From contig JAFSSM010000059.1 of assembly GCA_017451025.1 (NCBI GenBank), forward strand, positions 1 through 64,000: 64,000 nucleotides of DNA, written 5' to 3'. Positions within the stretch are counted from its first letter, which is position 1. Each line of letters starts with the position of its first letter. Below the pieces are notes generated by a model. The model was given only the letters and a program-made list of their open reading frames with translations. It was not told the origin of the DNA and did no database searches. This DNA comes from Synergistaceae bacterium. GTDB taxonomy: Bacteria; Synergistota; Synergistia; Synergistales; Aminobacteriaceae. Made by a program: the position numbers and the translations under genes. Positions 2,769 to 35,473 of the stretch are shown here, piece after piece.

Positions 2769-5360
2769 ATGGACATGAATAAATTGACTCGCAAAAGCCA
2801 GGAAGCATTAGCTCAAGCTCAGGCCACAGCCAGCGAATATAACCACCAGACCGTTGATGTCGGGCATGTGTTAGCCGCATTGCTCAGAGACTCTTCCGGG
2901 CTGATCGTACAGCTCCTGCAGAAAATGAACGTCAACGTTCCGGCACTCGAGCGCGCAGTTAATGATGAATTGTCGAAATTGCCCAGAGTTACAGGTTCAG
3001 GCACAGAACAGGGCAAAATTTACCTGACCCAGAGGCTCGACCGCGTGCTCAATCACGCCGCAGAAAGAGCTCAAACTCTCAAGGATGAATACATTTCCGT
3101 TGAGCACATATTTCTGGCAATGCTTGAGGACGACAAAAACAAACTCTTTGCCAGGTTCGGCATAACTGAGGAGAAATTCCTTAAGACGCTTAACGAAGTA
3201 AGAGGTTCACAGAGAGTCCAGAGCGCAGACCCCGAAGCAACATACGAGGCTCTCGCAAAATACGGCAGGGACTTGGTGGAGGCGGCAAAGAACGGAAAAC
3301 TTGACCCTGTTATCGGCAGAGACGACGAGATACGCAGAGTTATCCGCATACTCTCCAGAAAAACCAAGAACAACCCCGTCCTAATCGGAGACCCTGGAGT
3401 CGGGAAAACAGCAATCGTTGAAGGACTGGCCCAGAGAATCGTACGCGGTGATGTGCCCGAAGGACTGAAGGACAGGACAGTTTTTGCGCTCGATATGGGG
3501 TCTCTCATCGCCGGTGCAAAATTTCGCGGAGAGTTCGAGGAAAGATTGAAGGCAGTCTTGAACGAGGTCAAGAACAGCGACGGAAGAATACTGCTCTTCA
3601 TTGATGAGCTTCACACCATTGTGGGAGCAGGAGCGGCAGAAGGAGCAGTAGATGCCGGAAATATGTTGAAGCCCATGCTCGCGCGTGGAGAACTTCACTG
3701 CATCGGAGCTACTACCGTCGACGAATACAGAAAGTACATCGAGAAAGATGCTGCCTTAGCCAGAAGGTTCCAGCCCGTTGACGTTGAACAGCCAAGCGTT
3801 GAGGACACGATTTCGATTCTGAGGGGAATACGCGAAAAGTTGCAGGTGCATCACGGAGTCGTCATAAGGGATAATGCGCTGGTTTCGGCGGCTGTCCTGT
3901 CTAACAGGTATATCACCAACAGATTCCTTCCTGACAAGGCAATTGACCTTGTTGACGAAGCATGTGCAATGATCAGGACAGAAATAGACTCCCAGCCGTC
4001 AGAACTGGATGCGGCCTCGCGGAAAGTTATGCAGCTCGAAATTGAGGAGACAGCGTTAAAGCGTGAAGATGATGCGGCCTCTCAGGAACGCCTTAAAGTT
4101 CTTCAGAAGGAGCTTGCTGAAGCGAGGAACGAGGCAGATGCTCTCCGTGCACAGTACGATACGGAGAAGAAGGCAATTGCCGGGATAAGGGATATTCGCA
4201 GGAAGATTGATGAAGTGAAGGCGGAAATTGAGAAGGCGAAACGTGAATATGACCTGAACAAAGCCGCCGAACTTGAGTACGGAAAACTTAGGGAGCTTGA
4301 GGACGAATTAGCCGCAAAGGATAAGGTCAAGCAGGATAATTCGGCGGAGAAGAAACTGCTTCGTGAGGAAGTTACGGAGGATGAGATTGCTGACATAGTG
4401 AGCCGCTGGACCGGAATACCTGTTACACGGCTTCTCGAGGGCGAGCGAGAAAAGCTGCTCAATCTGGATAAAGTTCTGCACAAAAGAGTCGTCGGGCAGG
4501 ACGAGGCAGTAGAGAGCGTAGCTGATGCGGTAATCAGGGCACGAAGCGGCATTAAGGATCCGGGAAAGCCGATAGGGTCATTCATATTTCTTGGTCCGAC
4601 AGGTGTCGGAAAAACGGAGCTGGCCAAGACTCTGGCTGAGGCATTGTTCGATTCTGAGGAGAACATGATTCGCATAGACATGAGCGAGTACATGGAGAAG
4701 CATTCGGTCTCGCGCTTGGTGGGAGCACCTCCCGGATATATCGGCTATGACGAGGGAGGACAGCTCACAGAGGCAGTTAGGCGCAGACCCTACAGCGTGA
4801 TACTGTTCGACGAGATCGAGAAGGCACACCCGGATGTGTTCAACATTCTGCTGCAGGTTCTCGACGACGGCAGGATAACGGATTCACACGGGCACGTCGT
4901 GGACTTCAAGAACACGGTGATAATCATGACCAGCAATATCGGTTCGCAGAGTCTCATCGACGGCAACGTAAACGGGATCATCTCGCACGAAGCCCGCGAA
5001 GAAGTAATGCAGCAGCTCAGGGCATCGTTCAAGCCCGAGTTCCTGAACAGGGTAGACGATATAGTTTTCTTCAAGCCGCTTAGCATCGACGAGGTAAAGG
5101 CAATTGTGAGGATTATGCTCGGGCATTTGTCGGAGAGGCTGGAGGACCGCCAGATAACGCTGAACTTTACGGATGAGGCTGTAGGGTTTATCGCTGAGGC
5201 AGGGTATGATGCAGTGTACGGAGCACGTCCGTTAAAACGCTACATCACGCATAATCTGGAGACCAGGCTTGCGCGTGCAATGATTGCCGGAGGAGTTCAT
5301 GAGAAGGGTAAAGTGAACGTCGCACTGAAGAACGGAGCATTAACGTTCAATTTCGAGTAG
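2769..5360 (+). CDS. clpB: ClpB, ATP-dependent disaggregase
   Basis: ClpB is the hexameric cytoplasmic Hsp100 that threads aggregated proteins through its pore together with DnaK. The 863 residues match the usual length. In order one sees the Clp N-domain (first 145 residues), NBD1 with Walker A GDPGVGKT (206-213) and Walker [10 protein letters not shown], the long middle coiled coil rich in E, K and A (about 410-525), NBD2 with Walker A GPTGVGKT (609-616) and LFDEIEKAH, and the C-terminal domain. Both pore loops lie in well conserved contexts ([23 protein letters not shown]). The ribosome site is weak (AGGA 16 bases before the ATG). A clear hairpin terminator follows at 5378-5415, so the gene is probably monocistronic. 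Confidence 0.97.
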
Positions 5361-5473: not shown

Positions 5474-8400
5474 ATGAATGATCAAGACTCCAAGCCTGCA
5501 ATTGAAGACTTTTATTCGATGTCTGCAAATCTTGTGAGGCAGCTGGATAAAATATCCGGACTTCTGTCTTTAAGAAAGATACCTTCAGAAGCAGAATTTA
5601 GCTATGCGATTACAGAGCTTGAAGCTATGCGCAAAAATTTCAGCGGAATAGTCGAAAAAGCAGAAGTTATTTTCAGCGCGTTCGTCAACGTCAGAGCCAA
5701 ATCACAGGAATATGCTCAAGCATTGAAGGCATCGCAGAATGAAGCTCAAGCTATGCTGAGGAATATATCTGAAGTATGCATAGACGATATTATCCAGATG
5801 TCGGAAGTCTGTGAAGCATTTCTTTCCGCTATAAACATGGAGAATATTCCGTCGGACCTGGCACCGCTTGAACAGTATCCCGGCAAAGTTCTTGTAGGAG
5901 TGATCGGTCATCAGTATTACTTGGCCGACGCAGAACAGGAAACAGCTCCCGATGATGAAGAATACTTTATCCTGAAAATTGCGGATGAGCCGGCAATACA
6001 GCAGGAAACAGTGCAGGTAAAACCTGAACACAGCCAGATAACGGTTTACAGGCCGTCATTCATAAGTGATGATGAAGTAGAAGAAGTGCTTTTCCCTGTT
6101 AATCGCATAAAGACAGGAAAACCGAGTGCATCTTCCTTCAAAAACGATATGAAGAATCTGGCCATAGGGAACCGTTATATCAGGACGCTACTGCCTCTGC
6201 TCACGCATATTGGTGCAATGACTAAGGATCAGGCATATTTTTTCTGCTTATGCATGAACTGGATGCCCGATTCCGTTAGTGATAAGGCAAAGCTCGAAAC
6301 ATGCATAGATGTTCTTGCGCAGAAGGGCTATATCGCACACTATGAATACGGCGGCAAAGATATATACTGCCTGACTGTTTACACTTTCACGTGCATGGAG
6401 AAAAAGAGTATCGCTGAAAAAATGACCGGCTTTTGGAGATGCAGCTTCGGAGAAAATATTTTCGGAGGCAGGGACAGAATAAGCAGCTTTTTCCTGAAGT
6501 CAATGTGTGAGGCGAATTATGCACTGCTGCTATGCCTGCACTATGAAGTGGACAAATTGAACGAAATGGACTTCCATGCAGTAATGAACTCCATAAAATT
6601 CACGAGCGGTAATTATGATATTGACATAGTATATCAGGGAGAAATTTTCAGGTGTACTCTGCTGGTTGATCTATTCGAACTTCACAGTTTTGATGGTGCC
6701 AATGTCATAGTGATTTGCGGTGAAGGAGAACTGCCCGAGAAAATAAGCCCGAATATTCATGTACTATTTGTGCTGTCATTTGACAGAAACATGGTGCGTT
6801 ACAGCTGCCTTGACGGCGAGAAGGTCATGGTATCTCAGGATATACGTAGTGAGGTGCCTGATGATATAGACGACGACGAGACGTTTTTTAAGCTGAAGAA
6901 TGCGGATTTTGCTAAGTACCAGTCAGCAGAGAACGTTCCGGAAGATGTGCCCGCAATTGAGCTTAGTGCTTCTCCTCAGGCCAAGAAGACAGCCGGGATA
7001 AGAGGAGGCTGGCGCAAAATTAGTGATGACAGCCAGGCTATGACTCCAGGCACAGGCATAAAAAGCAAGGCCGTTGAAGTTCCGCTTGACCCTGCACCTG
7101 AAGACCCCACTCCTGTAGTTCCGCCGAGAAGAGGCAGAAGACGCAAAGCCGTTGACGCTCCGATTAACCCTGCACCTGAAGACCACACCCCTGCAGTTCC
7201 TCCAAGAAGAGGCAGAAGACGCAAAGCCGCCGAAGCTCCGCTCAATCCTGAGCCTGACGGCCAAGTTCCTGCGGCTTCTCCCGCCACCAGCACAGTTTAT
7301 GAATACCTGCAGACATTGCTGGAAGTCAGCGATGCACCTTCTGATGAGGCGTTCTGCTCAATTATCAACTATCTCCTGGACAGACAGGCCACGACATTTA
7401 ACGAACTCAGGTCTGTTATCGTGCAGTCAGTGCTCCTCGCAAATGGTGCCGCACTGGAAAAAGACCGCCCAATGGCTGAAAGTATCGCCTCTCAGCTCAA
7501 ACTGGCCTCACACCTCCTCACTGAAGATGCACCATACTCATCCGCACATCTCGCGTCCGTCTTCAATGACCCGGAAAAATCCAGGCCGGAATTTCTTCTG
7601 TCGGCCTACCTCCTCGCAATGCTCACTCCATCTGCTGAATATGACTATGGCCTTCAGGACCAGACCAGAATGTTCTTCACGAGATTCGACGACTACTTCG
7701 GCGCATTCCCGGCCTTCAAGCCGCTGTTCAGCAGGATGCTTTCCGTTGCAGAAGCATCAACTCGCGGATTCTCTGCCGCTGTGATTGCGATGATCGGAAG
7801 CGAAGCTGAAAAGGAAGCGTTTTTCGACAGCATGAAGTCCGAAGCAGAAAGTTACCTCAAGGTTCCGTCCCCTAAGACCAGAATGAAATCTCTGCCGCCT
7901 ATGTACAACAATTGCTTCGGGCCAGAAAGCGACCTGTATTCATGCATGAAGATAATTGCTGACGGCAAAAACGACACATCATCCGTTGAATTTGTCGAGG
8001 CAGTTCTTGACGAGTACTGCAAAAGGCAGAACGATACCTTCACACCGGACAGAAGCAGGCTCGATGCCCGCATTGATGAAGAGTGGGACAAAAATAACTC
8101 CGGGAACAAATTCAAGCTGACAGGCATAGCCCGTGAACACGCAATACGGCACTTCACGCTGAGGCTTGAGCTTATGGCACTATGGCACGAACAGACCGCC
8201 GCAATGGCCGGAAACAGCCGGAAGGATCTTTCCAAACTTCGCAGCCTGAAGCAGGAAATACTATCTCTGTGTTCCGATATTCAGGAAGAAAACGGAACAG
8301 AATATCCCAATATTCTGCTTTGGGTGCTGTCGTTCATTCAGAAGTACCTCAACGGAGAAATTTCCAGGCTCGGGATTTACTCGGAACTGCTTTTGACGGG

Positions 8401-10879
8401 AGCAATCCCCCTCAATGATGACGGTTCGCCCGACATAGATTCATCGATGGCCGAAATACGCTACTATGAGCCGTGGCGCAATGCACTGCGTCATATTCTT
8501 GCGGAGAAGAGAAGTCTTGAGGAGGTCAAGGCAGAAATTCTCGGCGACAACATCGACGACGACACACCCGGCCTGAAAGATAACCTGCACCAGCTGGAAA
8601 TGCTCGGGAAGATTACAGGCAGTACCGACGACGATTACGTTATCACCGAGTCCCAGCGCAAAGAGGCCGCAGATTCTGCCGATGAACGCGCCGAACACTT
8701 CAGGGATACTCTGGAACTTGCTTATACGTACAGCCAGATCAACGAGATCGAGAAGGAAAATCTTTCGGGCATAATGGCGAGATACAGGGACGATTTCTAT
8801 TCATCAATGAATTTTGCGGGCTGGAGATGTTTTCTTGAGGCACTGGAGAGGCAGATAAAGGAGTTCGCCGAAACGAGAAAATCCGTGCTCGAGTTCGGAC
8901 TCGATGCAAGGCTTGCGAAAAATCCTGACTCGGAACTGCTCCGCGAAGCTGAAAGGCTGCTCATGGAAGATATGAACTTGGCTGTAGCAGAAGAATATCT
9001 TAACCGCTATGATGCAGGCGAGACAAAAATTGATGAGGGTGTTCTTCACGAGAACGATTACTTTGCGGATTTTCTGGCTAAGGAAAATTTTGACAGGCTG
9101 CTTCAGGAATGCAGGCGCAATGAAGGACGCGCACTCAAAAATTTTGGCTGGAAGTATCTTGAACGCAATTTCCCGAAGGACTGGACGAGCAAGCACCGCG
9201 ACAACAGCAAAAAACTCATTGAGAGCTGGCCTTCTCGCAAGGACACAGCCAGCACCGAACAGATAAAGACTCTTTTCACGTGTCTGGGCTTCAAGGTTAC
9301 GAATGTCCTCAAGAAGATTGGCAGCAAGGAAGAAATATTCCAGATTACCGCCGAGCCCGAGCCTAAGAGCAAGGCAGATTACCGTCATCCTATCGCGGCT
9401 TTCGGGACTCAGCTCAAATCTCCCGTGAACGTGATTATTCTGTACGGCAACTTCATGGAGAAACAGCTTGTTGATACCGTGTCGTCGCTTGACTTGGGCG
9501 GAATATCAATAGTCCTCGTTGACACCCCGATAGAGGCGGCAAGACGGCGGCTTATCGGAGAAATTTTCCACACCCAGACCTCAGGACAGAACAGGTTCCT
9601 ATTGATAGATCAGGTACTTTTCCTTTATCTTGCGTGCCATCAGGACACCGAAAGACTGCCTGCACTTCTGGAATGCACTCTGCCTTACACAACATATCAG
9701 CCTTTCGTCAGGGACGGCGGAGCTACTGCGGACGAAATGTTCTTCGGACGGACTCAGGAACTCGCTACGCTGATAGACCCCAACGGTGCGTGCGTGGTGT
9801 ACGGAGGCCGCCAGCTCGGCAAGACAGCACTGCTTGAACGTGTCGCCAGCAGGTGTTCGAAGCCCGAAGAGAGGGCTTTTGCGGTGTACTCTTCGATCGT
9901 GAAGATAACCGACGAAGCCGAAGTAGTCTCAGAACTTATTGACGGCATCGCCAGAAAAACAGAAGGCACAATCACCCTCAACAAGTGTTCAACGCTCAAG
10001 GAAATGTGTGCTCAGCTCAGCAATATGTTCATGAAAGGAAAAATAGTCTCTATGCATCTGCTGATAGATGAAGTTGATTCCTTCATTGATGCAATTTCAG
10101 ACCAGGCATACAGACCTCTTCAGCCTCTTGTTGACCTGAAACGTGAGACCAAGAACAACTTCAAGTTCGTGATTGCCGGGCTTCACAATGTCTGCAGGGC
10201 AAGGAATGCCACACGCGAAAACGGAATATTCGGCCAGCTCGGTACGCCTTTGTGCATAAGGCCGCTCTCTCCGACTGATGCGTTCAGGCTGTTATCGAGA
10301 CCGCTCAAGTATCTCGGGTTCCAGATAGGCCGCTACTCACACCTTGAGACCATCCTTACCAACACCAATTACTACCCCGGGATAGTCCAGTTCTTCGGGT
10401 ATATGCTTGTACAGACGCTCAACGGCCAGTACTCGAAGTATTACCATGCCGCCGACGGGAATCCGCCCTTTATGCTTCAGAATGAGCATCTCGGTTCCGT
10501 CATGAACTCGTCGGACCTGAACAAGAGCATCAAGGACAAATTCCGGTGGTCTCTTGAGCTTGACCGGCGTTACTTTATGCTGGCACGGTGCATTGCTGTG
10601 CTCTATCACTGCTACTTGAGCGATATATATTCTGGCAGCTGGCTGGGCTTCAAGACTCAGGACATTATCGACACCGCCGAAGCCTACGGTATACACTGCC
10701 TGAAAAACATATCGTACGACGATTATGTGAGCCTGCTCGACGAAATGGAAGAGATGGGTATTCTGAGCCGGCCGGAAACCGGAATGTACCGTCTTCGCAG
10801 AAGTTCATTTGTGGACATAATCGGCGAGAATATCGATGTGCTGGAACATGATATTGCTGCTGAGAATTTGGAGGGCTAG
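5474..10879 (+). CDS. Very large multidomain ATPase (STAND/Orc-like P-loop module), candidate defence sensor
   Basis: This 1801-aa protein is not one I can assign to a named family. Only its C-terminal quarter is clear: an FFGRTQEL entry box, Walker A GGRQLGKT (1444-1451), Walker B HLLIDEVD (1528-1535), a sensor-like FVIAGLHN strand, and a C-terminal winged-helix-like region ending in GMYRLRR. This order is typical of STAND/Orc1-type AAA switches. The N-terminal part starts with a helical region and a winged-helix-like segment (about 220-320). Residues 534-603 are a proline-rich linker of 26-aa repeats, each full copy ending in the basic PPRRGRRRKA. The middle 800 residues are helix-rich and featureless by eye. 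No membrane segment is seen. The partner gene starts 3 bp after the stop. Size, switch ATPase and the HEPN-like partner make a conflict or defence role the best guess, but this is inference. Confidence 0.75.
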   Translation: MNDQDSKPAIEDFYSMSANLVRQLDKISGLLSLRKIPSEAEFSYAITELEAMRKNFSGIVEKAEVIFSAFVNVRAKSQEYAQALKASQNEAQAMLRNISEVCIDDIIQMSEVCEAFLSAINMENIPSDLAPLEQYPGKVLVGVIGHQYYLADAEQETAPDDEEYFILKIADEPAIQQETVQVKPEHSQITVYRPSFISDDEVEEVLFPVNRIKTGKPSASSFKNDMKNLAIGNRYIRTLLPLLTHIGAMTKDQAYFFCLCMNWMPDSVSDKAKLETCIDVLAQKGYIAHYEYGGKDIYCLTVYTFTCMEKKSIAEKMTGFWRCSFGENIFGGRDRISSFFLKSMCEANYALLLCLHYEVDKLNEMDFHAVMNSIKFTSGNYDIDIVYQGEIFRCTLLVDLFELHSFDGANVIVICGEGELPEKISPNIHVLFVLSFDRNMVRYSCLDGEKVMVSQDIRSEVPDDIDDDETFFKLKNADFAKYQSAENVPEDVPAIELSASPQAKKTAGIRGGWRKISDDSQAMTPGTGIKSKAVEVPLDPAPEDPTPVVPPRRGRRRKAVDAPINPAPEDHTPAVPPRRGRRRKAAEAPLNPEPDGQVPAASPATSTVYEYLQTLLEVSDAPSDEAFCSIINYLLDRQATTFNELRSVIVQSVLLANGAALEKDRPMAESIASQLKLASHLLTEDAPYSSAHLASVFNDPEKSRPEFLLSAYLLAMLTPSAEYDYGLQDQTRMFFTRFDDYFGAFPAFKPLFSRMLSVAEASTRGFSAAVIAMIGSEAEKEAFFDSMKSEAESYLKVPSPKTRMKSLPPMYNNCFGPESDLYSCMKIIADGKNDTSSVEFVEAVLDEYCKRQNDTFTPDRSRLDARIDEEWDKNNSGNKFKLTGIAREHAIRHFTLRLELMALWHEQTAAMAGNSRKDLSKLRSLKQEILSLCSDIQEENGTEYPNILLWVLSFIQKYLNGEISRLGIYSELLLTGAIPLNDDGSPDIDSSMAEIRYYEPWRNALRHILAEKRSLEEVKAEILGDNIDDDTPGLKDNLHQLEMLGKITGSTDDDYVITESQRKEAADSADERAEHFRDTLELAYTYSQINEIEKENLSGIMARYRDDFYSSMNFAGWRCFLEALERQIKEFAETRKSVLEFGLDARLAKNPDSELLREAERLLMEDMNLAVAEEYLNRYDAGETKIDEGVLHENDYFADFLAKENFDRLLQECRRNEGRALKNFGWKYLERNFPKDWTSKHRDNSKKLIESWPSRKDTASTEQIKTLFTCLGFKVTNVLKKIGSKEEIFQITAEPEPKSKADYRHPIAAFGTQLKSPVNVIILYGNFMEKQLVDTVSSLDLGGISIVLVDTPIEAARRRLIGEIFHTQTSGQNRFLLIDQVLFLYLACHQDTERLPALLECTLPYTTYQPFVRDGGATADEMFFGRTQELATLIDPNGACVVYGGRQLGKTALLERVASRCSKPEERAFAVYSSIVKITDEAEVVSELIDGIARKTEGTITLNKCSTLKEMCAQLSNMFMKGKIVSMHLLIDEVDSFIDAISDQAYRPLQPLVDLKRETKNNFKFVIAGLHNVCRARNATRENGIFGQLGTPLCIRPLSPTDAFRLLSRPLKYLGFQIGRYSHLETILTNTNYYPGIVQFFGYMLVQTLNGQYSKYYHAADGNPPFMLQNEHLGSVMNSSDLNKSIKDKFRWSLELDRRYFMLARCIAVLYHCYLSDIYSGSWLGFKTQDIIDTAEAYGIHCLKNISYDDYVSLLDEMEEMGILSRPETGMYRLRRSSFVDIIGENIDVLEHDIAAENLEG
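7073..7282 (+). repeat. 78-bp tandem repeat coding a basic proline-rich linker
   Basis: Two full 78-bp units (7073-7150, 7151-7228) and a partial third encode 26-residue repeats with the pattern PLDPAPED...PPRRGRRRKA. The RRGRRRK cores resemble AT-hook or nucleic-acid-binding basic patches. The repeats join the N-terminal and central parts of the large ATPase. Confidence 0.85.
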
Positions 10880-20847: not shown

Positions 20848-22674
20848 TTAGGCCGCCCCCTTCCCCAAATATGCCTCAATCACTCGCGGATTTGCCCGTA
20901 TTTCGTCGGGCGTTCCCTGCGCAATGTGTACTCCCTGATCCAGCACGTGAATGTAGTCGCACACATTCATCACTACCTTCATATCGTGCTCAATCAGCAA
21001 TATAGTTAGGTCAAATTCATCACGCAGTCTCCGAATGAATTTGAGGAGTTCTTCTGACTCTTGCGGGTTCATTCCTGCGGCCGGCTCATCGAGAAGCAGG
21101 AACTTCGGGCGGGTCGCAAGTGCACGGGCAATCTCGAGTCTTCTCTGAGCACCATACGGAAGGCTTGAGGCTGTCTCTTCGGCCAAGTCAGCAAGCCCCA
21201 ATTGTCCGAGAAGGTCTAGTGCCTGCGCCCTGACTGCGGCATCTTCACGTAGCACATCCGTGAACACAAACGGCAGCAACGACATCCACCAGTGATAGCC
21301 CTGACGGATTCGTGCTCCGGTCATTACGTTCTGAAGGACTGTCTCGTGCCCGAAGAGGCGGATATTCTGGAAAGTCCTGCTCATTCCCGCTTTGCAGACC
21401 TCATCAGGACTCAGACCTCCTATCGATTTTCCCAAGAACTTTATGCTCCCTGATGTAGGCTTGTAGAAACCGCTTATTACGTTAAACGCGCTGGTCTTGC
21501 CTGCACCGTTAGGGCCGATTAGTCCCATAATCTGCCCGTGCTTTATGTCGAAAGTCAGCGTGTCTATCGCCGTAAGTCCTCCGAACTTCAGCATTACGTC
21601 CTTCACCTCAAGCACAGTGTCAGAATCTTCATGTGTCTCTTTGGGCTTGGCCGACTTCTTAGGGAAAAATATATCCCACGAAAATTCGCGCATACCCATT
21701 ATGCCCTCGCGCCTGAAGATGATTACGACAATCAACAACAGCGAGAATATCACCATTCGCATACCAGGTATGCCCGGAATGTTTATGCTCCCAATCGTTA
21801 TGGGGTTCTCGACAATTCGGAGCCATTCCAGCATCGTCGTAACCAGCACCGAACCAATTAACGATCCTGTAACGCTCCCAAGTCCTCCAACGACAATAAT
21901 CATGAGGATGTTGTAGGTCTGGGTAATCATGAACATTCGCGGGTCAATCGTGGTTATGAGGTTGCCCATCAGTGCACCGCCAAGTCCTCCGCCGAAGCAA
22001 CCGAGAGTGAAAGCGATAACCTTAACCTTGAACGTGTTGATGCCCATCATTCTGGCCGCAACTTCGTCATCGCGCACAGCCCGCAACACTCCGCCGAAAT
22101 TGCTCCGCAACATGCAGACCATGCACAGCAGGACGACTCCCAAGCATCCCCAGCTCATGAAAAGCGTTGTGTGAGCAGGAATACCTTTCAGGCCAAGTGA
22201 ACCGTTGGTGAGCCGTGCAGTGTTGGTGATGAGAATCCTTATTATTTCCGCGAACCCTAACGTAGCAATTCCGAGATAGTCCCCGCCTAAACGAAGAACT
22301 GGGAGAGCAACAAGCAGACCGAAGAACGCTGCCGCAAGTCCAGCAAGAACCAGCGACACGATGAACGGAGTGTTGACGTTCAGCAGCCACGGATAAATGT
22401 CCTCGAGAATCCACATCGCATTTTTCTGCGCAGGAGTGAGGATCAGCAACGCAGACACATATGCGCCTATCGCCATAAACCCGGCGTGTCCGAGTGAGAA
22501 CATTCCGGTTATTCCGTAAATCAGGTTGAGCGAGAGGGCAAGTATCGCGTTAATCGCTATGAGGTTCAGGATTCTCTGCCAGTAGCCATTGAGAAGTTCG
22601 GGAGCTTTGTCGAGGAAAAATGCGAACAATACCACAGCCGCAACAGTCAGCAGCAAATTACGTGTACGCTTCAT
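20848..22674 (-). CDS. LivM-LivG fusion (permease plus ATPase)
   Basis: One 608-aa chain holds both components. Residues 1-345 are the LivM permease (LNLIYGITGMFSLGHAGFMAIGAY; EARRMMG-like AARMMGIN; VVGGLGSVTGSLIG). Residues 355-608 are the LivG ATPase, with Walker A GPNGAGKTS, the LivG-type signature LPYGAQRRLEIARAL and Walker B LLLDEPAAGMNP. A charged linker (PKKSAKPKETHEDSDT) joins them. In most bacteria these are separate genes. The start overlaps the livH stop by one base (TAATG). The transporter therefore probably assembles as LivH, LivMG and LivF with the binding protein LivJ. Confidence 0.95.
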   Translation of the reverse strand: MKRTRNLLLTVAAVVLFAFFLDKAPELLNGYWQRILNLIAINAILALSLNLIYGITGMFSLGHAGFMAIGAYVSALLILTPAQKNAMWILEDIYPWLLNVNTPFIVSLVLAGLAAAFFGLLVALPVLRLGGDYLGIATLGFAEIIRILITNTARLTNGSLGLKGIPAHTTLFMSWGCLGVVLLCMVCMLRSNFGGVLRAVRDDEVAARMMGINTFKVKVIAFTLGCFGGGLGGALMGNLITTIDPRMFMITQTYNILMIIVVGGLGSVTGSLIGSVLVTTMLEWLRIVENPITIGSINIPGIPGMRMVIFSLLLIVVIIFRREGIMGMREFSWDIFFPKKSAKPKETHEDSDTVLEVKDVMLKFGGLTAIDTLTFDIKHGQIMGLIGPNGAGKTSAFNVISGFYKPTSGSIKFLGKSIGGLSPDEVCKAGMSRTFQNIRLFGHETVLQNVMTGARIRQGYHWWMSLLPFVFTDVLREDAAVRAQALDLLGQLGLADLAEETASSLPYGAQRRLEIARALATRPKFLLLDEPAAGMNPQESEELLKFIRRLRDEFDLTILLIEHDMKVVMNVCDYIHVLDQGVHIAQGTPDEIRANPRVIEAYLGKGAA

Positions 22675-28240: not shown

Positions 28241-30433
28241 TCAATTTTTCCACAGATTCAGCCTGGTATACACACGCTCACGCATTCTCCATCCCAGAAC
28301 CTCACACCCATACTCCGCCATGTCCTCACACGCTCCAGGACTACCCATTCTCTCGCGTCCCGCCCTGCTCATCTTCCCGTAAAGCTCCGCATCACGCAAA
28401 ACCCTCAACGCACATTCCGCCAGTGCATGACCATCTGCCTCAACCAACAGCTCAGAATCCCCCAGCAGCTTCTTCTGCACTCTCTTTCCCTTCTCGTCAA
28501 TGCTGATTACCGGAATACCAAGCCCGGCGCACAACTGATTCGCTGTTCCTCCAAGCCCGATAAGAATCTTCACTCCTTCCGACGCAGAAGCTACACCCTC
28601 ACGCGTTAAGTCTATACTCACTCTTCCACGCAAAAGCCTTCCGTCATTAACCCTCCAGCCATAAGACAAGCACGCTTCCAGAAATTCAGCGTCAGGCAGT
28701 GTCGGAGCAAGCACCATCCTGAATTTTTCCTCACCCGAAATACTCAGCTCTTCCGCCGCATCAAGCAATAACTTCACATCCTTGCACGCCCTCATTCTCG
28801 AGCCAGGCAGAAGCAGTATCACTTCCCCCTTCACATAGTTATGTTCACCGAGCAAATCCATCACTGGACTTCCCGAATACACAGCCCTCTTCCCTAGCTG
28901 TTCCGCACTCTTCGCATCGCGCGTCCATGTCCTCAGCGTAAAACGGTTAATCAGTGCCCGCTCAATTCGCCAGTGTCCGGAAAGATACACCGTCTTGGCC
29001 GTCGCGCAGAACATAGGCCGGGCACCAGACCCCCACAGAGTATGAAGCAGCAAATACACATCCCCCACACAAACAGGAGTCCTCACAGTCCGCGCAATCT
29101 TCTTCCAGTCCGCAAGCTGTGCACGTACATGCTTCAAGAGTCCAGCCCGCATATCTCCCCACAAATCTTTAAGCGAATATTTCAGCACCCCGCCTGACGG
29201 AGTTACCGACGGAGCAGACTTCACAGGGAATCCGGCCTGAATATATGCATCACCTTTCCCGACAAGAGGAAACGCGCAAATTTCCGAAGCAGGCAGTTTT
29301 TCACGGAGCTTCTGCGCCAGCGTTACGCCTATTGCGTCCTCACCGTAACCGTTCGAGGCAATTACTATTCTGGGCTTCAGGCAGTCGGTGAGCACTGCGA
29401 AAAAACGTTCAGGCTCATTTACGGCGGCCCTGACCTTCGGAATAACCAGAGGCACAGGGAATTTTAGTGAGGTCATCTGCGGAAGGTTGTACAGGTCTTT
29501 TTCTGTGCAGGCTATGAAGCCGGAATGTCCAGATATTGCCAGACTGCCAAGTTCCTCTATGTCCCGCGATGAATACCTGTGATGATCCGTGAACTGTTTA
29601 TGCCCGGAGATAACGAACCCCCACTCGGTGAGTGAACGCCTGAAGCTGTCGGGACTGCCTATCGCAGAAAATGCGAATACCCTTGCTCCGGATTCAGGAG
29701 GTGTGTCCGTTCCGTAAAGAAGCCAGCCGTCATGTTCAAGCCTTGCCGTGAAAATGCGCTCTTCAGGCACGTACTCAGCAACACGTTTGCGCAGTGAAGC
29801 CAGTTCTTCATGGCTGACCTGCTCAGACTTTGTGAGCACAACTATATCTGCTCGTGAGAGTGCCGAAACTTGTTCGCGCATAATTCCGTCCGGAATCAGA
29901 TTGCCAGAACCGAACGGGCACATCGCATCAATCAGCACTATATCGACATCACGGCCAAGTGCTTTGTGCTGGAATGCATCGTCTGCAATCACAAGTTCTG
30001 CTCCGGCTTCGCGCAGTGCCTTCACCCCGTCTATTCTGTGCCTAGCTACTGCTACAGGGATACCTGGAAGTTCTCGCGACAGCATAAGCGGCTCATCGCC
30101 GGTAACTTCACGGTCTCCATTTCCGCCAAGAATCAGCGCAACATTCCGGGTATGACCGGTGTAGCCTCGAGTAACTATTCCTGCACTAATTCCGCATTCT
30201 CCTGCGAACTTGGCCAGCATCTCAACGAATGGTGTCTTGTTCGTCCCGCCGTAGGTGATATTTCCGACGCTGATTAACGGGAGCGGAGGTTCTTCGGTTT
30301 TGAGGAGGCCGTGTGCTCTCAGAAAGTCCAGCAGGGCAATTACCCAGCCGCTAACCCATGCCAGCGGCTTAAAGAGAAGTCCGAGCAGGAAGTTACGCTT
30401 TGTGCCCCTGACATGATGCATGTAGATTTTCAT
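28241..30433 (-). CDS. LpxK-LpxB-like fusion: lipid A 4'-kinase plus disaccharide-synthase-related domain
   Basis: Residues 1-350 match tetraacyldisaccharide 4'-kinase LpxK: a membrane-proximal N-terminal helix, the P-loop region SVGNITYGGTNKTPF (56-69), DDAFQHKALGRDVDIVLID and ACTEKDLYNLP. The P-loop reads GGTNKT where LpxK normally has GGTGKT, so Asn replaces a Gly at residue 65. Residues from about 352 (IVIASNGYGEDAIG) match the lipid-A-disaccharide-synthase-related family, with GSRMRACKDVKLLLDAAE and GLGGTANQLCAGLGIPVI. Two adjacent lipid A steps are thus in one chain. The ATG overlaps the HNH gene stop (ATGA). It ends the operon that also holds msbA and a second LpxB-like gene. Confidence 0.85.
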   Translation of the reverse strand: MKIYMHHVRGTKRNFLLGLLFKPLAWVSGWVIALLDFLRAHGLLKTEEPPLPLISVGNITYGGTNKTPFVEMLAKFAGECGISAGIVTRGYTGHTRNVALILGGNGDREVTGDEPLMLSRELPGIPVAVARHRIDGVKALREAGAELVIADDAFQHKALGRDVDIVLIDAMCPFGSGNLIPDGIMREQVSALSRADIVVLTKSEQVSHEELASLRKRVAEYVPEERIFTARLEHDGWLLYGTDTPPESGARVFAFSAIGSPDSFRRSLTEWGFVISGHKQFTDHHRYSSRDIEELGSLAISGHSGFIACTEKDLYNLPQMTSLKFPVPLVIPKVRAAVNEPERFFAVLTDCLKPRIVIASNGYGEDAIGVTLAQKLREKLPASEICAFPLVGKGDAYIQAGFPVKSAPSVTPSGGVLKYSLKDLWGDMRAGLLKHVRAQLADWKKIARTVRTPVCVGDVYLLLHTLWGSGARPMFCATAKTVYLSGHWRIERALINRFTLRTWTRDAKSAEQLGKRAVYSGSPVMDLLGEHNYVKGEVILLLPGSRMRACKDVKLLLDAAEELSISGEEKFRMVLAPTLPDAEFLEACLSYGWRVNDGRLLRGRVSIDLTREGVASASEGVKILIGLGGTANQLCAGLGIPVISIDEKGKRVQKKLLGDSELLVEADGHALAECALRVLRDAELYGKMSRAGRERMGSPGACEDMAEYGCEVLGWRMRERVYTRLNLWKN

Positions 30434-31230
30434 GAACGCCGAAATTTTCTGTCATTCCCTTCTGTTCTGCGTCTCATGATGTATTCGCTGTCCTCATCAG
30501 AGACGTATATTTTCCCGTCGTGTATCTTGTTGTGGCACAGCACACATAACACCTGCAGATTCTCAGGCCGTATATCGCTCTTAACGTGATTTCTGTGGTG
30601 AACATGAAGGAGGCCGGGCTTTTCGTGAAGTTTCGCTCCGCACAGACTGCACCGCCAGTGATTGAGTTCGCGCATCACCTGAGATATAGCCTTCCAGTTA
30701 GCGGGGTATTCGTCCGGCAGAATCACTCCCATCCTGACGCGGTCTATATATTCTCGCGGCAAATTCCCCTTTGTGCGTTCAACCAGGCTGGATATGCTGA
30801 AAGGTTCAGGGTATTTCCAGGCCTTCAGGCAGTTCTGGCACACATCAAGCTCCCTTGATGAACCGTCGGACATAACGAATAATCCTGATGTGTCGCTGGT
30901 CAGCCGGAACCTCTCGAGCCTTCCGTTCTTCTCCATCGCCTTAATCGTCGAGCAGAGCATGAAGTGAAATTTGGGCAGAGTTCCGTACATCTTGAAACCG
31001 TTTACTGACGGAATATACAGCAGGAATAATCCCGAATACTTGTCGATTGTGAATAGCCCTGAAGGATTGTGCAGGATATTTTGTGCGGCCTGAACTTTTT
31101 TTGCGCTGTCGATGTCCAGCGTAATAACTGGTTTAGGCATCGGCACAAGATCATATTCCACCTGCGGAGCGTTAATTCTCTGCTGAAGCCTGAGCAGCGG
31201 TGCAAATATTCTTTCAGTGTCCAGCTTCAT
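30430..31230 (-). CDS. HNH endonuclease, third gene of a Zorya-like set
   Basis: The C-terminal part (about residues 190-237) is an HNH nuclease: CSLCG, then HVHHRNH, then PENLQVLCVLCHNKIH, giving two CxxC zinc-binding pairs and the His-Asn-His catalytic pattern. Upstream residues include another CQNC pair and a beta-rich N-terminal region of unknown fold. I choose the ATG at 31230 because GGAGG lies 5 bases before it; the frame upstream begins at a TTG without a site. The start lies inside the OmpA-like gene (17-bp overlap) and the stop overlaps the lpxK start. The pairing with MotA- and MotB-like genes recalls ZorE in type II Zorya. It is too small and differently organised to be sure. Confidence 0.85.
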   Translation of the reverse strand: MKLDTERIFAPLLRLQQRINAPQVEYDLVPMPKPVITLDIDSAKKVQAAQNILHNPSGLFTIDKYSGLFLLYIPSVNGFKMYGTLPKFHFMLCSTIKAMEKNGRLERFRLTSDTSGLFVMSDGSSRELDVCQNCLKAWKYPEPFSISSLVERTKGNLPREYIDRVRMGVILPDEYPANWKAISQVMRELNHWRCSLCGAKLHEKPGLLHVHHRNHVKSDIRPENLQVLCVLCHNKIHDGKIYVSDEDSEYIMRRRTEGNDRKFRRS

Positions 31231-31840
31231 CTTTTCCTCCAAGTATCTCCTCTATGCTGCTGTCAGAGTCTATGCGTACACGAAATTCCACACGTCGCGA
31301 CAGTTCCGGATTCTCCTTACCATCAGGATTCAGAATAAGCCTTCCTGATGACATTCCGTTAGCCGTGATCGTGCGCATTGCCCAGTCGAGATACTCCGAA
31401 ACTTCAAGCAGGTTAAGGCTGTACTGCAAAACTGTCCTGGCTCTTTCCTGAGAAAGTTTCATGTTGTTGAAATATGCCTCCAGTTTGTCAGGCGCATCTT
31501 TCCACTCTGAAGAAGTATGACCCTCGATTCTGACTTCGGCGATATGGTCACGATAGCGGTCAAGAATGTTTATGTAGCGCGGGAAAAAATCATCAAGTAC
31601 CAGCTTGAAACCCGGCGTCAATATTGAACTCCCGGCACCAAAGAAAACAGACGGCTCCCTGAACCTCACTGCCAAAGTTTCACGGTCGATATATGCCTGC
31701 CATTCCTGAAGGTTACGGCTAAATTCCGTCTGCAGGTCATCAAAGAGTCTGTTACCGGTCTCCTGCCACGCCAAAGCTATATCCTCTACCTTCTGCCTGG
31801 CAGCTTCAGCCTGAGCTTTGGCTTTCGTTACGCTGTTCAT
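31214..31840 (-). CDS. OmpA/MotB-like protein without a membrane segment
   Basis: This 208-aa protein begins with a charged coiled-coil helix (residues 1-55). An OmpA/MotB C-terminal domain follows: a beta strand with FGAGSSIL, IEGHTSS, then NNMKLSQERARTVLQY and LSRRVEFRV. OmpA domains usually read GHTD; here the Asp that binds diaminopimelate is Ser, while the Arg in the following helix is kept. MotB and ZorB have an N-terminal transmembrane helix that completes the ion channel, and none is visible here. The ATG overlaps the stop of the channel gene by four bases (ATGA), so they are translationally coupled. The role is probably structural or peptidoglycan-linked sensing. Confidence 0.8.
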   Translation of the reverse strand: MNSVTKAKAQAEAARQKVEDIALAWQETGNRLFDDLQTEFSRNLQEWQAYIDRETLAVRFREPSVFFGAGSSILTPGFKLVLDDFFPRYINILDRYRDHIAEVRIEGHTSSEWKDAPDKLEAYFNNMKLSQERARTVLQYSLNLLEVSEYLDWAMRTITANGMSSGRLILNPDGKENPELSRRVEFRVRIDSDSSIEEILGGKDEAGH

Positions 31841-32640
31841 GGACGGCCTGCCTTGCGTGATGCTTCACTCAGTGCTTCGAGCCTGTGAGTTATTGTGCTG
31901 ATGTCCTCAATCAGTTTTTCGTCAATCGATGCCAGATTGTTTGCCATAGTCTGGAGTGCTTCTGCCAGTGCCAGCTGTGTGTGGTACTCGAGCTGTTCCA
32001 TCCTGTTCGTTATAGTCCTCCCGATAGCTGCGTTTGCATTGTTGAATGTGCTCTCTACGTTTTGCATTCCCTGCTTAAGAATCGCCTCAAGGTTCAGCGT
32101 AATATTTTGTATGTGTCTGGCCTGACTATCTGCTGATTTTTCGACAGAAGCCGCAAAAGTTCCGAGACTCCCTGCCAGCCGCTTCACCAATCCTGCAGAC
32201 TCATTGAGGGACTTGGCCGACTCCTCAACAGCCGCAGAAAATTTCTCAATTGCGTTGCCAATGTCAGGGATAGAAGCTCTAGTCTCACTGACGGGTGAAT
32301 ATATTTTCATTAAGTAATGCGTCAAATTTATGAAGGCCGCGTAGAACATTCCGAGTATGCTCGTCCAGAATGCCAGCTTCAGCCCCTCAAGCAACACAGG
32401 TATGCTCGCGTCAATGTTGCGTGAATCAAAGCCTCCAAGTCCTACAGCTGCTCCCCAGAACGTCCCGAATAATCCTAACGATGTAAGGAGACCAGGTGCA
32501 CGCGAAACTATCCAGACCCGTTTTTCCTGTTTCCTGTCAGACAGCAACGCCACAATTGACAGCGCAAAGACCAGACTTATCGCCATTGTGAACGCAAAAG
32601 CCGTCGCTGTTCCGAACAAACCATCAATTATTATTCTCAT
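31837..32640 (-). CDS. MotA/TolQ/ExbB-family channel protein with coiled-coil tail (ZorA-like)
   Basis: The 267-aa protein has three hydrophobic segments (about 8-32, 50-72, 84-110). The family core sits in PGLLTSLGLFGTFWGAAVGLGGF and LLEGLKLAFWTSILGMFYAAF, the pattern of proton-channel subunits MotA, TolQ, ExbB and ZorA. Residues 118-267 form a long heptad-rich cytoplasmic tail, as in ZorA but much shorter. It starts 2 bp after the msbA stop. With the OmpA-like and HNH genes downstream it forms a three-gene set, co-directional and overlapping. A general Tol/Exb role in envelope energy coupling is the main alternative. Confidence 0.85.
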   Translation of the reverse strand: MRIIIDGLFGTATAFAFTMAISLVFALSIVALLSDRKQEKRVWIVSRAPGLLTSLGLFGTFWGAAVGLGGFDSRNIDASIPVLLEGLKLAFWTSILGMFYAAFINLTHYLMKIYSPVSETRASIPDIGNAIEKFSAAVEESAKSLNESAGLVKRLAGSLGTFAASVEKSADSQARHIQNITLNLEAILKQGMQNVESTFNNANAAIGRTITNRMEQLEYHTQLALAEALQTMANNLASIDEKLIEDISTITHRLEALSEASRKAGRP

Positions 32641-32642
32641 GA

Positions 32643-34370
32643 TTACCCTTCCCCGAACTGCATCCTGTACAGCTCAGCGTAAAGCCCTCCTGACTTCATC
32701 AGCTCATCGTGTGTCCCTGATTGCGTGAAATGCCCGCCCTCAAGCACTAATATCCTGTCCGCCTCACGAATCGTCGTCAACCTGTGCGCAATGATGAATG
32801 ATGTCCTGCCACGCATTGCACGGTTAATCGCCCCCTGCACTGCACGTTCAACAGCAATATCCAGCGAACTCGTAGCCTCATCCAGAATCAGGATTCTCGG
32901 GTCTCTAATCACTGCACGGGCTATCGCAATTCTCTGACGCTGGCCCCCTGACAAAGTTACGCCACGCTCTCCGACTTCGGTATCATATTTTTCCGGCAGG
33001 GACTCGATGAACTCCCTGATGTCCGCAATTTCCGCCGCATCTATCACACGCTGAATGTCAACGTTATCCAGACCGTAGCCTATGTTGAACGCAATACTTC
33101 CCTTCATGAGCACGCATTCCTGCGGCACAATCCCTATCTGGCGGCGAAGTTCCCGCAGTGAAAGTGTCCGTATATCCTGGCCGTCAATCAGGATTTTTCC
33201 TGCTGTAGGGTCATAGAATCTGGGGATAAGGTCCGCAAACGTCGACTTCCCTGAACCAGTAGCACCGACTATTGCGATTTTCTCTCCGGCCTTAACGTCA
33301 AGGTCTATTCCGCTCAGAATCTCCTGTCCTTCCTCGTACCAGAATGAAACACCCTCAAACTTCACAGCTCCCTTCAGACGACCGGGATTAACGCCTTCTG
33401 TTCCCTGCGAGTTCTCGACGGGCATCAACAGCATATCCTGAATCCTCTCCGCACTCGCAATTCCGGTCTGCAGAGTTCCCATGTTGTTCATCACTGAACG
33501 TATAGGCTGAACCATGAACGCAATATACCCCACAAACGATATAAGCTCGCCGGGCGTAAGGCTTCCGTCGATGACGTTATGCCCTCCGAACCAGAACACA
33601 ACAGCCAGCGCAATTATCAGGAACACCTCAATCACTCCGGCCAATATTCCCTGAATTGAGACTGCCTGCATTAAGGCCGTATAGTTCTCCGCATTTGCCT
33701 TCTTGAACCGTTCAAGCTCCATATCCTCCGTCGCAAATGAACGGACGACTCGAATTGCACTGAAGGCTTCTTGAGCCGTCGCCGTTATGTCCGCCAAATG
33801 TTCCTGCACGTTGTGGCCGGCCCTGCGCAGTTTCTTCGAGGCAAACGACAGCAGAAATCCCACAACAGGAAGCACCAGAACGATTAACAGCGTCAGTCTC
33901 CAGTTGATATAGACGATGAACGCGAACATTCCCAAGAACGTAACGAGATTGAACAGAAGCTCTACGATTGTGCTGGTTACTATGTTCTGCAGGACTGCAA
34001 CATCTCCGGTAATGCGGCTCATCAGTTCTCCGATTCGGGAAGCGTAAATTTTCTGCAGGCTCATTCTCTGCATGTGGTCGTACAGCTCCGTACGAATATC
34101 CATCACCACAGACTGCCCCGCCTCGTTCATCAGGTAACGCTGGTAGTACGTAGTTATCGCCTTAAGCCCGAAAATCACGACGATTGAGACGCATATTACG
34201 TTGAGCATGAAGATATTGCGCGAGATGAGCACATCGTCAACGATATTCTTGAACAGGTAGGGCGGAAGGACATTCAGCGCAGAAGAAGCCAGCATGAACA
34301 TCATCGCCAGAAAGATTTTGAGGGAGTATTTGCGTGTCCTGGAGAGCAGGAATCTTATCGGCTGGTTCAT
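32643..34370 (-). CDS. msbA: MsbA-type lipid flippase ABC transporter
   Basis: This 575-aa exporter has six N-terminal membrane helices and one ATPase domain with Walker A GATGSGKST, signature LSGGQRQR and Walker B ILILDEATSSLD. Sequence and context (between two lipid A genes) fit MsbA, which flips lipid A-core across the inner membrane and works as a homodimer. The start is the ATG at 34370, which overlaps the stop of the LpxB-like gene by four bases. An in-frame extension upstream encodes only basic residues from the shadow of that gene and is not real. Confidence 0.9.
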   Translation of the reverse strand: MNQPIRFLLSRTRKYSLKIFLAMMFMLASSALNVLPPYLFKNIVDDVLISRNIFMLNVICVSIVVIFGLKAITTYYQRYLMNEAGQSVVMDIRTELYDHMQRMSLQKIYASRIGELMSRITGDVAVLQNIVTSTIVELLFNLVTFLGMFAFIVYINWRLTLLIVLVLPVVGFLLSFASKKLRRAGHNVQEHLADITATAQEAFSAIRVVRSFATEDMELERFKKANAENYTALMQAVSIQGILAGVIEVFLIIALAVVFWFGGHNVIDGSLTPGELISFVGYIAFMVQPIRSVMNNMGTLQTGIASAERIQDMLLMPVENSQGTEGVNPGRLKGAVKFEGVSFWYEEGQEILSGIDLDVKAGEKIAIVGATGSGKSTFADLIPRFYDPTAGKILIDGQDIRTLSLRELRRQIGIVPQECVLMKGSIAFNIGYGLDNVDIQRVIDAAEIADIREFIESLPEKYDTEVGERGVTLSGGQRQRIAIARAVIRDPRILILDEATSSLDIAVERAVQGAINRAMRGRTSFIIAHRLTTIREADRILVLEGGHFTQSGTHDELMKSGGLYAELYRMQFGEG

Positions 34371-35473
34371 TGTGCTGTAACTATGTCGCAAAGTCTCGAG
34401 GCAGCTCCGGACTTGCCCGAAAGACTCAGCAGTTCTTCCCGCGTCTTGCGGAGTCCCTCCGTGTCGGCGAGGCGTTCGCATATTTCTTCGGCGGCATCTT
34501 CCGGCGTAATATCTCCCCACATTTCGGCCATAACCTTATGCGGTGCAATCCTGTTCGGCAGAGAAATATACCCTCCCCAGCGTTTTATGACCCTGAGCGT
34601 CCCGATTCGGCGGAGCTTCAGTCCAAGAAGAGGAATATTCGCCAAAATCCCCAGCACTCCTGAAACAGGCACGAACCGCAGGAATTTTTCGGGAGCAGCA
34701 ACCAGCGCAGGAAGCCCGCAGTGCATCAGCTCAAAGTTATTTGTGCCCGGCTGAGTCAGAGCATAGTCGGCTTCACGCATAGCGACACCTGCTCCGGCAC
34801 GTACAGGGTTTAGCCCTGCCTTCTGCCACGACGAAAACTCCGACTCGGGCATGAACTGCGAGAATAGAGTCCTGACCCTTACAGATGGCATTCTGGCTTT
34901 CAGGGCATCATGTGCTTCCGCTAGCCAAGACAGAGCAGGTTTCCGGATAGCCGGACGCGAGCCAGGCAGAAAGAGTATGCGCGGAGAAGATGCATCTTTC
35001 GGCCAGTTCCACATAGACACCCCCGAAGGAGTTATGTCCATCGCCACAGCATCCTTCACCAGATCCCCGATTGCCTCAACATTCGGAATGTCGCCTGCTT
35101 GAGCTTCGTATGCGGTCAGGGTTTTTGCGCCTTGAATGAATTTTCGCGGGCCGTATGTGTAGCATGTCAACGGGGCATCAGTTTTTTCCGACATTCTGAG
35201 GCCGAATGCAATATCTCCTCCAAGCTGAATAATTCTGTCAGTCCGTTCTTCGGCAATATCCCGCCATATTCTGGAGGCGTTAGCCGGGCCTTCCAGCTTG
35301 TCCACTCCCAAAAGGGAAGCGGCTTCGCGTTCATGGCCGGAAGCAAACTGACAGGGCAATATCCATAAAGATATGGTGTGTCCTCTTTTGCGTAATTCCG
35401 AAGCAACAGGTCGAACCCATCCCCATAATTCGCCGGGCCCGTTAGTGAGAATAGTAATCCGCAAGAAATTCAC
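34367..35473 (-). CDS. Lipid-A-disaccharide-synthase-related glycosyltransferase
   Basis: The 368-aa protein opens with RITILTNGPGELWGWVRPVASELRKRGH, typical of the LpxB-related family, and contains FLPGSRPAIRKPALSWL and ALTQPGTNNFELMHCGLPALV, the nucleotide-sugar end of the GT-B fold. It is the first gene of the operon that continues with msbA. It is a second LpxB-like protein beside the C-terminal half of the LpxK fusion, so either one carries the true LpxB reaction or the two differ in substrate. The frame begins at a GTG at 35473; a TTG three codons later is better spaced (9 bases) from AGGGAT and may be the true start. Confidence 0.8.
   Translation of the reverse strand: MNFLRITILTNGPGELWGWVRPVASELRKRGHTISLWILPCQFASGHEREAASLLGVDKLEGPANASRIWRDIAEERTDRIIQLGGDIAFGLRMSEKTDAPLTCYTYGPRKFIQGAKTLTAYEAQAGDIPNVEAIGDLVKDAVAMDITPSGVSMWNWPKDASSPRILFLPGSRPAIRKPALSWLAEAHDALKARMPSVRVRTLFSQFMPESEFSSWQKAGLNPVRAGAGVAMREADYALTQPGTNNFELMHCGLPALVAAPEKFLRFVPVSGVLGILANIPLLGLKLRRIGTLRVIKRWGGYISLPNRIAPHKVMAEMWGDITPEDAAEEICERLADTEGLRKTREELLSLSGKSGAASRLCDIVTAQ

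What the first reader, a model, noticed from the sequence alone, without database searches (positions are those of the whole stretch)
30430..32640. Reduced Zorya-like three-gene set (channel, OmpA-like, HNH nuclease) inside the lipid A operon
Seen: a MotA/TolQ-type channel protein with a coiled-coil tail, an OmpA/MotB-type protein and an HNH endonuclease are translationally coupled (ATGA and 17-bp overlaps), between msbA and an lpxK fusion. Known: type II Zorya consists of ZorA (MotA-like), ZorB (MotB-like) and ZorE (HNH). Odd: the channel tail is short, the OmpA-like protein has no visible membrane helix and has GHTS in place of GHTD. This could be a minimal or new Zorya variant, or an envelope-tension sensor that triggers a nuclease.
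Basis: partly seen in the sequence, partly recalled or inferred. Interest (0 to 1): 0.77.

Follow-up and report, generated by a model that had tools for sequence, protein, structure and literature searches.

The report
Zorya II defence operon, truncated ZorB
Inside a lipid A operon of a Synergistaceae bacterium sits a three-gene type II Zorya anti-phage system whose anchor protein ZorB has lost exactly its membrane helix and ion-coupling residue, so it is probably a disabled copy of a known defence; related species carry a motor-less gene pair that looks new.

Summary
The trio is real and is type II Zorya by homology: PADLOC ZorA2 9e-30, ZorB2 1.4e-69, ZorE2 3e-37; a model of ZorB best matches the solved type II ZorB 8VVI. 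It is not lipid A machinery: ZorB occurs in 2/43 genomes of the genus and 8/83 of the family, and the msbA-lpxK junction is empty in most relatives. GHTS is normal for ZorB2 (52/62). ZorA's tail is short, but its nearest relative also has only 284 residues.

The real oddity is ZorB. It starts at the Met that follows the membrane helix in its nearest relative; helix and conserved Asp are gone, while all 62 relatives checked keep the helix. The gene start looks like a deletion between two ATGAA copies. Published work finds every component, ion flow and peptidoglycan binding important, so I predict a motor-dead allele.

In passing: several congeners carry a ZorE-like nuclease behind a single-helix coiled-coil protein, mostly ending in a ZorA-like tail tip, with no ZorB or ZorA core. 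This possible motor-less relative was seen only in this genus among 188 Synergistota genomes and is the most novel lead.

The parts
31837..32640 (-). zorA: type II ZorA, 267 aa, MotA/ExbB-type membrane core plus short cytoplasmic coiled-coil tail
   Evidence: PADLOC ZorA2 9.1e-30; 8VVI chain F 3.6e-16; C-terminus aligns with that of the 284-aa nearest relative
31873..32073 (-). ZorA tail-tip module (about residues 190-256), conserved in type II ZorA and in the coiled-coil proteins of the motor-less pairs
   Evidence: residues 208-256 align with 8VVI chain F 322-370; tip profile tests
31214..31840 (-). zorB: type II ZorB, 208 aa, OmpA-like peptidoglycan-binding domain complete, N-terminal membrane helix and ion-coupling Asp missing
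   Evidence: PADLOC ZorB2 1.4e-69 from profile position 42 on; alignment A2 lacks the first 39 columns; model matches 8VVI, TM 0.80
31834..31842 (-). inferred deletion junction: one ATGAAC where the nearest relative has a native start ATGAA and, 105 nt on, an internal ATGAAC
   Evidence: DNA comparison with L097; missing segment not found elsewhere in the genome
30430..31230 (-). zorE: HNH nickase-type effector, 266 aa
   Evidence: PADLOC ZorE2 3.2e-37; residues invariant in the ZorE alignment, including the HNH Cys and His, are present
30517..30651 (-). HNH domain of ZorE
   Evidence: Pfam HNH 1.1e-4, above its cut-off
28241..34520 (-). insertion context: msbA-type exporter (ORF 32643-34520) and lpxK fusion (28241-30433) flanking the trio
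   Evidence: Pfam; junction empty (-5 to +34 nt) in most genus members examined; G003 carries both an empty and a zorE-bearing allele

Best explanation
The locus is a type II Zorya operon (zorA-zorB-zorE) that entered a lipid A operon between msbA and lpxK and is probably co-transcribed with it. In working Zorya II, five ZorA and two ZorB form an ion-driven motor that binds peptidoglycan; infection activates it, ZorAB recruits the ZorE nickase to the membrane, and DNA is nicked (published, PMC11890865). In this genome an in-frame deletion of about 105 nt, probably slippage between two ATGAA copies, removed about the first 35 residues of ZorB: its only membrane helix and the conserved Asp. What remains is a peptidoglycan-binding domain that should stay in the cytosol, reaching neither ZorA's pore nor the wall. 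I therefore predict that the motor and phage-triggered ZorE recruitment are lost while ZorA and ZorE are still encoded. Shown here: homology, the missing helix, its presence in all 62 relatives checked, absence of the segment elsewhere in the assembly. Inferred: slippage, loss of function, co-transcription.
For: Profile hits to all three type II Zorya components; 8VVI by sequence and fold. Window ZorB starts at MNSVTKAK, which in the nearest relative directly follows the helix ...DMMSGLMIIFLFISVAY. All 62 relatives have the helix. No helix in another frame or elsewhere in the genome. Window ZorB evolves faster than its nearest relative against Synergistota outgroups (five of six tests significant), ZorA core and ZorE do not; branch 0.68 against 0.17. 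Deletion of each component, the ZorB Asp mutant, and loss of the peptidoglycan domain or ZorA tail were tested in PMC11890865 and reported as important.
Against: All three frames are open and all 35 residues invariant among 17 ZorBs are kept, so there is no further decay. With distant outgroups the ZorB acceleration is not significant in single comparisons and ZorE also looks fast. The genome is a draft in 62 contigs and no reads were available.
Confidence: 0.7

Rival explanations
1. Reduced but functional variant: ZorA, held in the membrane by its own helices, presents its tail to ZorE without a working motor; ZorB is vestigial or acts in the cytosol. The window would be a step towards the motor-less pairs seen in the same genus.
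For: ZorA and ZorE are intact and, against near outgroups, not accelerated while ZorB is. Congeners carry coiled coil plus ZorE pairs without ZorB. ZorE can contribute to defence without ZorAB in one reported setting (PMC13192584).
Against: Every ZorB relative checked keeps its helix, and the E. coli type II system needed each component against T7 (PMC11890865). The window ZorB keeps all invariant residues, unexpected for a long-vestigial protein. ZorE is also fast against distant outgroups.
Confidence: 0.15
2. Assembly or strain-mixture artefact: the real genome has an intact ZorB and the contig misses about 105 nt.
For: Draft assembly; a congener (G003) shows two alleles at this very site, so strain mixtures occur.
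Against: The repeats at the junction are only about 5 nt, too short to collapse an assembly graph, so some real molecules probably carry the deletion (inference). The segment is absent from the rest of the assembly.
Confidence: 0.13
3. Envelope housekeeping genes belonging to the lipid A operon.
For: Location between msbA and lpxK only.
Against: Specific Zorya profile hits, sporadic occurrence, empty junction in most relatives, other contexts of Zorya in relatives.
Confidence: 0.01

Closest known systems
Zorya type II (ZorA2-ZorB2-ZorE; E. coli ATCC 8739, Sulfuricurvum kujiense 8VVI)
   Same: Gene order and content, profile matches for all three proteins, ZorB domain fold, HNH motif, conserved ZorA tail tip
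   Different: ZorB lacks its membrane helix and Asp; ZorA tail shorter (267 aa against 378 and 550 residues); located in a lipid A operon
Intact Zorya II of the congener G013 (L004/L011)
   Same: 56% identity in the ZorA core, 60% in ZorB, 35% in ZorE; short ZorA (284 aa)
   Different: ZorB complete with helix; located next to a tyrosine-phosphatase-like gene, not in the lipid A operon
Coiled coil plus ZorE pairs of the same genus
   Same: ZorE-like nuclease; ZorA-like tail tip in most
   Different: One membrane helix only, no MotA-type core, no ZorB
MotAB/PomAB stators
   Same: ZorB domain fold (PomB and MotS hits); channel superfamily
   Different: No flagellar link; nuclease partner; only distant similarity

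Membership tests
Zorya type II | Adjacent zorA, zorB and zorE matching type II profiles | tested here: met
   (9.1e-30, 1.4e-69, 3.2e-37)
Zorya type II | ZorA: MotA-type core plus cytoplasmic tail | tested here: met
   tail short; C-terminus aligns with that of the relative
Zorya type II | ZorB: N-terminal membrane helix with conserved Asp | tested here: not met
   absent here, helix present in 62 of 62 relatives
Zorya type II | ZorB: peptidoglycan-binding OmpA-like domain | tested here: met
   Pfam OmpA 1.7e-7; model matches 8VVI; binding itself not tested
Zorya type II | ZorE: HNH nuclease | tested here: met
   nicking activity not tested
Zorya type II | Ion flow and phage defence | not testable with these tools
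   needs experiment; predicted lost
Conserved lipid A operon genes | Present at msbA-lpxK across the genus | tested here: not met

The most novel reading that the evidence does not exclude
In this genus the Zorya rod and nickase work without the motor: a single-pass membrane coiled-coil protein ending in a ZorA-like tail tip, paired with ZorE, forms a two-gene defence system. The tip would be the ZorE docking site, and the window trio, with its helix-less ZorB, would be a step on the way from Zorya II.
Probability: 0.25. Interest if true: 0.72.

Novelty: new variant of a known kind. Interest (0 to 1): 0.42.

Why it matters
The window allele is a natural ZorB helix deletion: it can test whether ZorA plus ZorE keep any function without the motor. 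The congeneric motor-less pairs, if they defend, would show that ZorE recruitment by a membrane coiled coil is separable from ion-driven rotation, and would point to the ZorA tail tip as the nuclease docking site, which I did not find settled in the papers read. If instead the allele is simply dead, this is ordinary defence-gene turnover.

Tried and rejected
Lipid A housekeeping role: rejected by the empty junctions. GHTS as an anomaly: rejected, it is the norm. Helix in another frame: no. Helix elsewhere in the genome: no. Repeat-bounded insertion: no flanking repeats of note. Defence island around it: 8 of 9 neighbouring proteins had no PADLOC hit; the mad3 hit of the protein at 20848-22674 was not pursued. 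Same zorB start in IMG/VR: no match. Tail-tip similarity as mere coiled-coil composition: tested with mid-tail controls and heptad-preserving shuffles; best control 13.9 bits, best shuffle or reversal 10.5, real tips 14-29 bits, with G033 and one of the two G034 copies showing none.

Full report
What is there. Three minus-strand genes lie between an msbA-type exporter and an lpxK-containing gene: zorA 32640-31837, zorB 31840-31214 and zorE 31230-30430, overlapping by 4 and 17 nt; zorE overlaps lpxK by 4 nt. PADLOC profiles identify ZorA2 (9.1e-30), ZorB2 (1.4e-69) and ZorE2 (3.2e-37). NCBIfam's type II Zorya models are also the best hits for all three, though below their strict cut-offs. Sequence search of the PDB gives the type II ZorAB complex 8VVI for ZorB (2.6e-39) and ZorA (3.6e-16). 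A model of the window ZorB (mean pLDDT 88) matches 8VVI best (TM 0.80).

Distribution and site. ZorB is found in 2 of 43 genomes of the genus and 8 of 83 of the family, the window's own included. In most congeners examined msbA and lpxK are adjacent, with gaps of -5 to +34 nt. G003 holds two alleles: contig C91 joins msbA directly to lpxK, and contig C114 has a ZorE C-terminal part (68% identical to the window's over 101 residues) in front of lpxK; the first 160 nt of lpxK differ at 2 positions. G030 has a ZorE-like gene before lpxK, preceded by the end of a coiled coil, where the contig stops. So msbA-lpxK is a recurrent, polymorphic site for ZorE-bearing cassettes. No flanking repeats of note and no clear defence island were seen.

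The oddities. GHTS is normal: 52 of 62 ZorB relatives have it. The ZorA tail is short, but the nearest relative has 284 residues and the C-termini align, so the tail is not cut. ZorB is the real anomaly. In the nearest relative the protein reads MKIKFKNFKPDDSWAHISDMMSGLMIIFLFISVAY-MNSVTKAK; the window starts at MNSVTKAK. The missing part holds the only membrane helix and the near-invariant Asp of the SD[LM]M motif, which lines up with the motif of S. kujiense ZorB, whose ion-coupling Asp is D21 (PMC11890865). All 62 relatives have a hydrophobic N-terminal helix. The window's frame meets a stop eight codons upstream, and the segment is not elsewhere in the assembly. In L097 both the native start and the internal Met read ATGAA; in the window a single ATGAAC follows the ZorA end, as expected after a deletion between short repeats (the mechanism is inferred).

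Is the deletion old? With Synergistota outgroups, ZorB changes are 39:11, 36:9, 28:7, 32:13, 18:11 and 27:10 (window:L097), significant in five of six; ZorE (46:40, 51:37, 29:26, 36:32, 38:34) and the ZorA core are balanced. The ZorB tree gives branches of 0.68 and 0.17, with moderate support (81) for the pairing; ZorA gives 0.69 and 0.46. With distant outgroups the ZorB comparisons lean the same way but are not significant singly, and ZorE also appears fast (for example 23:9 against L097); in the ZorE tree L097 is not clearly the sister of the window. I read this as suggestive of relaxed constraint on ZorB, not as proof. All 35 residues invariant in 17 ZorBs are kept.

Mechanism. Published for Zorya II: a ZorA5B2 motor with the ZorB Asp facing a Ser/Thr ring; peptidoglycan binding, ion flow and the ZorA tail important; ZorE a nickase sent to the membrane by ZorAB on infection (PMC11890865). 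Without the helix, ZorB should neither sit in the ZorA pore nor be placed in the periplasm; its N-terminus is not hydrophobic. The prediction is a motor-dead allele with ZorA and ZorE still encoded. ZorE acting without ZorAB has been reported in synergy with Druantia III (PMC13192584).

Motor-less pairs. A ZorE search found further ZorE-like nucleases in the genus without ZorB hits. In G001, G018, G025, G033, G034, G041 and G042 the gene directly upstream encodes a coiled coil, with a single N-terminal helix in all of these (in G034 seen in the complete copy, L151; the other copy is cut short); G017 is fragmentary. In G018, G025, G034, G041 and G042 the nuclease side carries a second copy of the N-terminal FHFM...C..C module, in G018 as a separate ORF. 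The nucleases of five pairs score ZorE2 at 4e-21 to 5e-42. A profile of ZorA tail tips matches six of the coiled coils, and the G030 fragment, in one register near the C-terminus at 14.1-28.7 bits; the best mid-tail control reaches 13.9 and the best heptad shuffle or reversal 10.5; G033 and one of the two G034 copies show no match. The lowest scores are hardly above the best control, so the homology is well supported only for G018, G025, G041 and G030. That profile includes Synergistota ZorA tips; without them the separation from controls is weaker. That the tip docks ZorE is inference. In 188 Synergistota genomes the pair was seen only in this genus; G105 and G146, elsewhere in the order, carry zorA, zorB with its helix, and zorE. 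I did not find the pair described in the papers searched; other phyla were not surveyed.

Verdict. A type II Zorya operon by homology, in an unusual and polymorphic location, with a ZorB that fails a defining feature of a working Zorya motor: most likely a degenerate derivative. Filed as a variant rather than a full member for that reason. The related motor-less pairs are the part worth following.

Noticed in passing
L140:5323-6693; L141:3264-4909; L142:4095-6023; L144:3957-5973; L145:5583-7707; L147:5004-7619; L143:57-1665 and L151:1-1772: Congeners carry a two-gene unit: single-helix coiled-coil protein followed by a ZorE-like HNH nuclease, often with a doubled N-terminal module, without ZorB or a ZorA core. 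Possible motor-less relative of Zorya II.
   Followed up: partly
L106:4090-4248 and L107:1378-1680 (genome G003): One assembly holds two alleles of the msbA-lpxK junction, one empty and one with the end of zorE, indicating presence/absence polymorphism of the cassette.
   Followed up: partly
L089:2432-3316 (genome G030): ZorE-like gene directly upstream of lpxK, preceded by the end of a coiled coil matching the ZorA tip profile; contig ends there, so Zorya or motor-less pair cannot be told apart.
   Followed up: partly
L146:4192-5509 (genome G017): Broken copy of the coiled coil plus ZorE pair between purine biosynthesis genes.
   Followed up: no
window 5474-10879 (+): 1801-aa protein after a ClpB-type ATPase (2769-5360) with no Pfam match at 1e-5.
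   Followed up: no
L021, L022, L026-L029, L035: Bacteroidales loci have ZorA/ZorB relatives followed by a 590-714-aa protein instead of a 260-300-aa ZorE; its identity was not examined.
   Followed up: no
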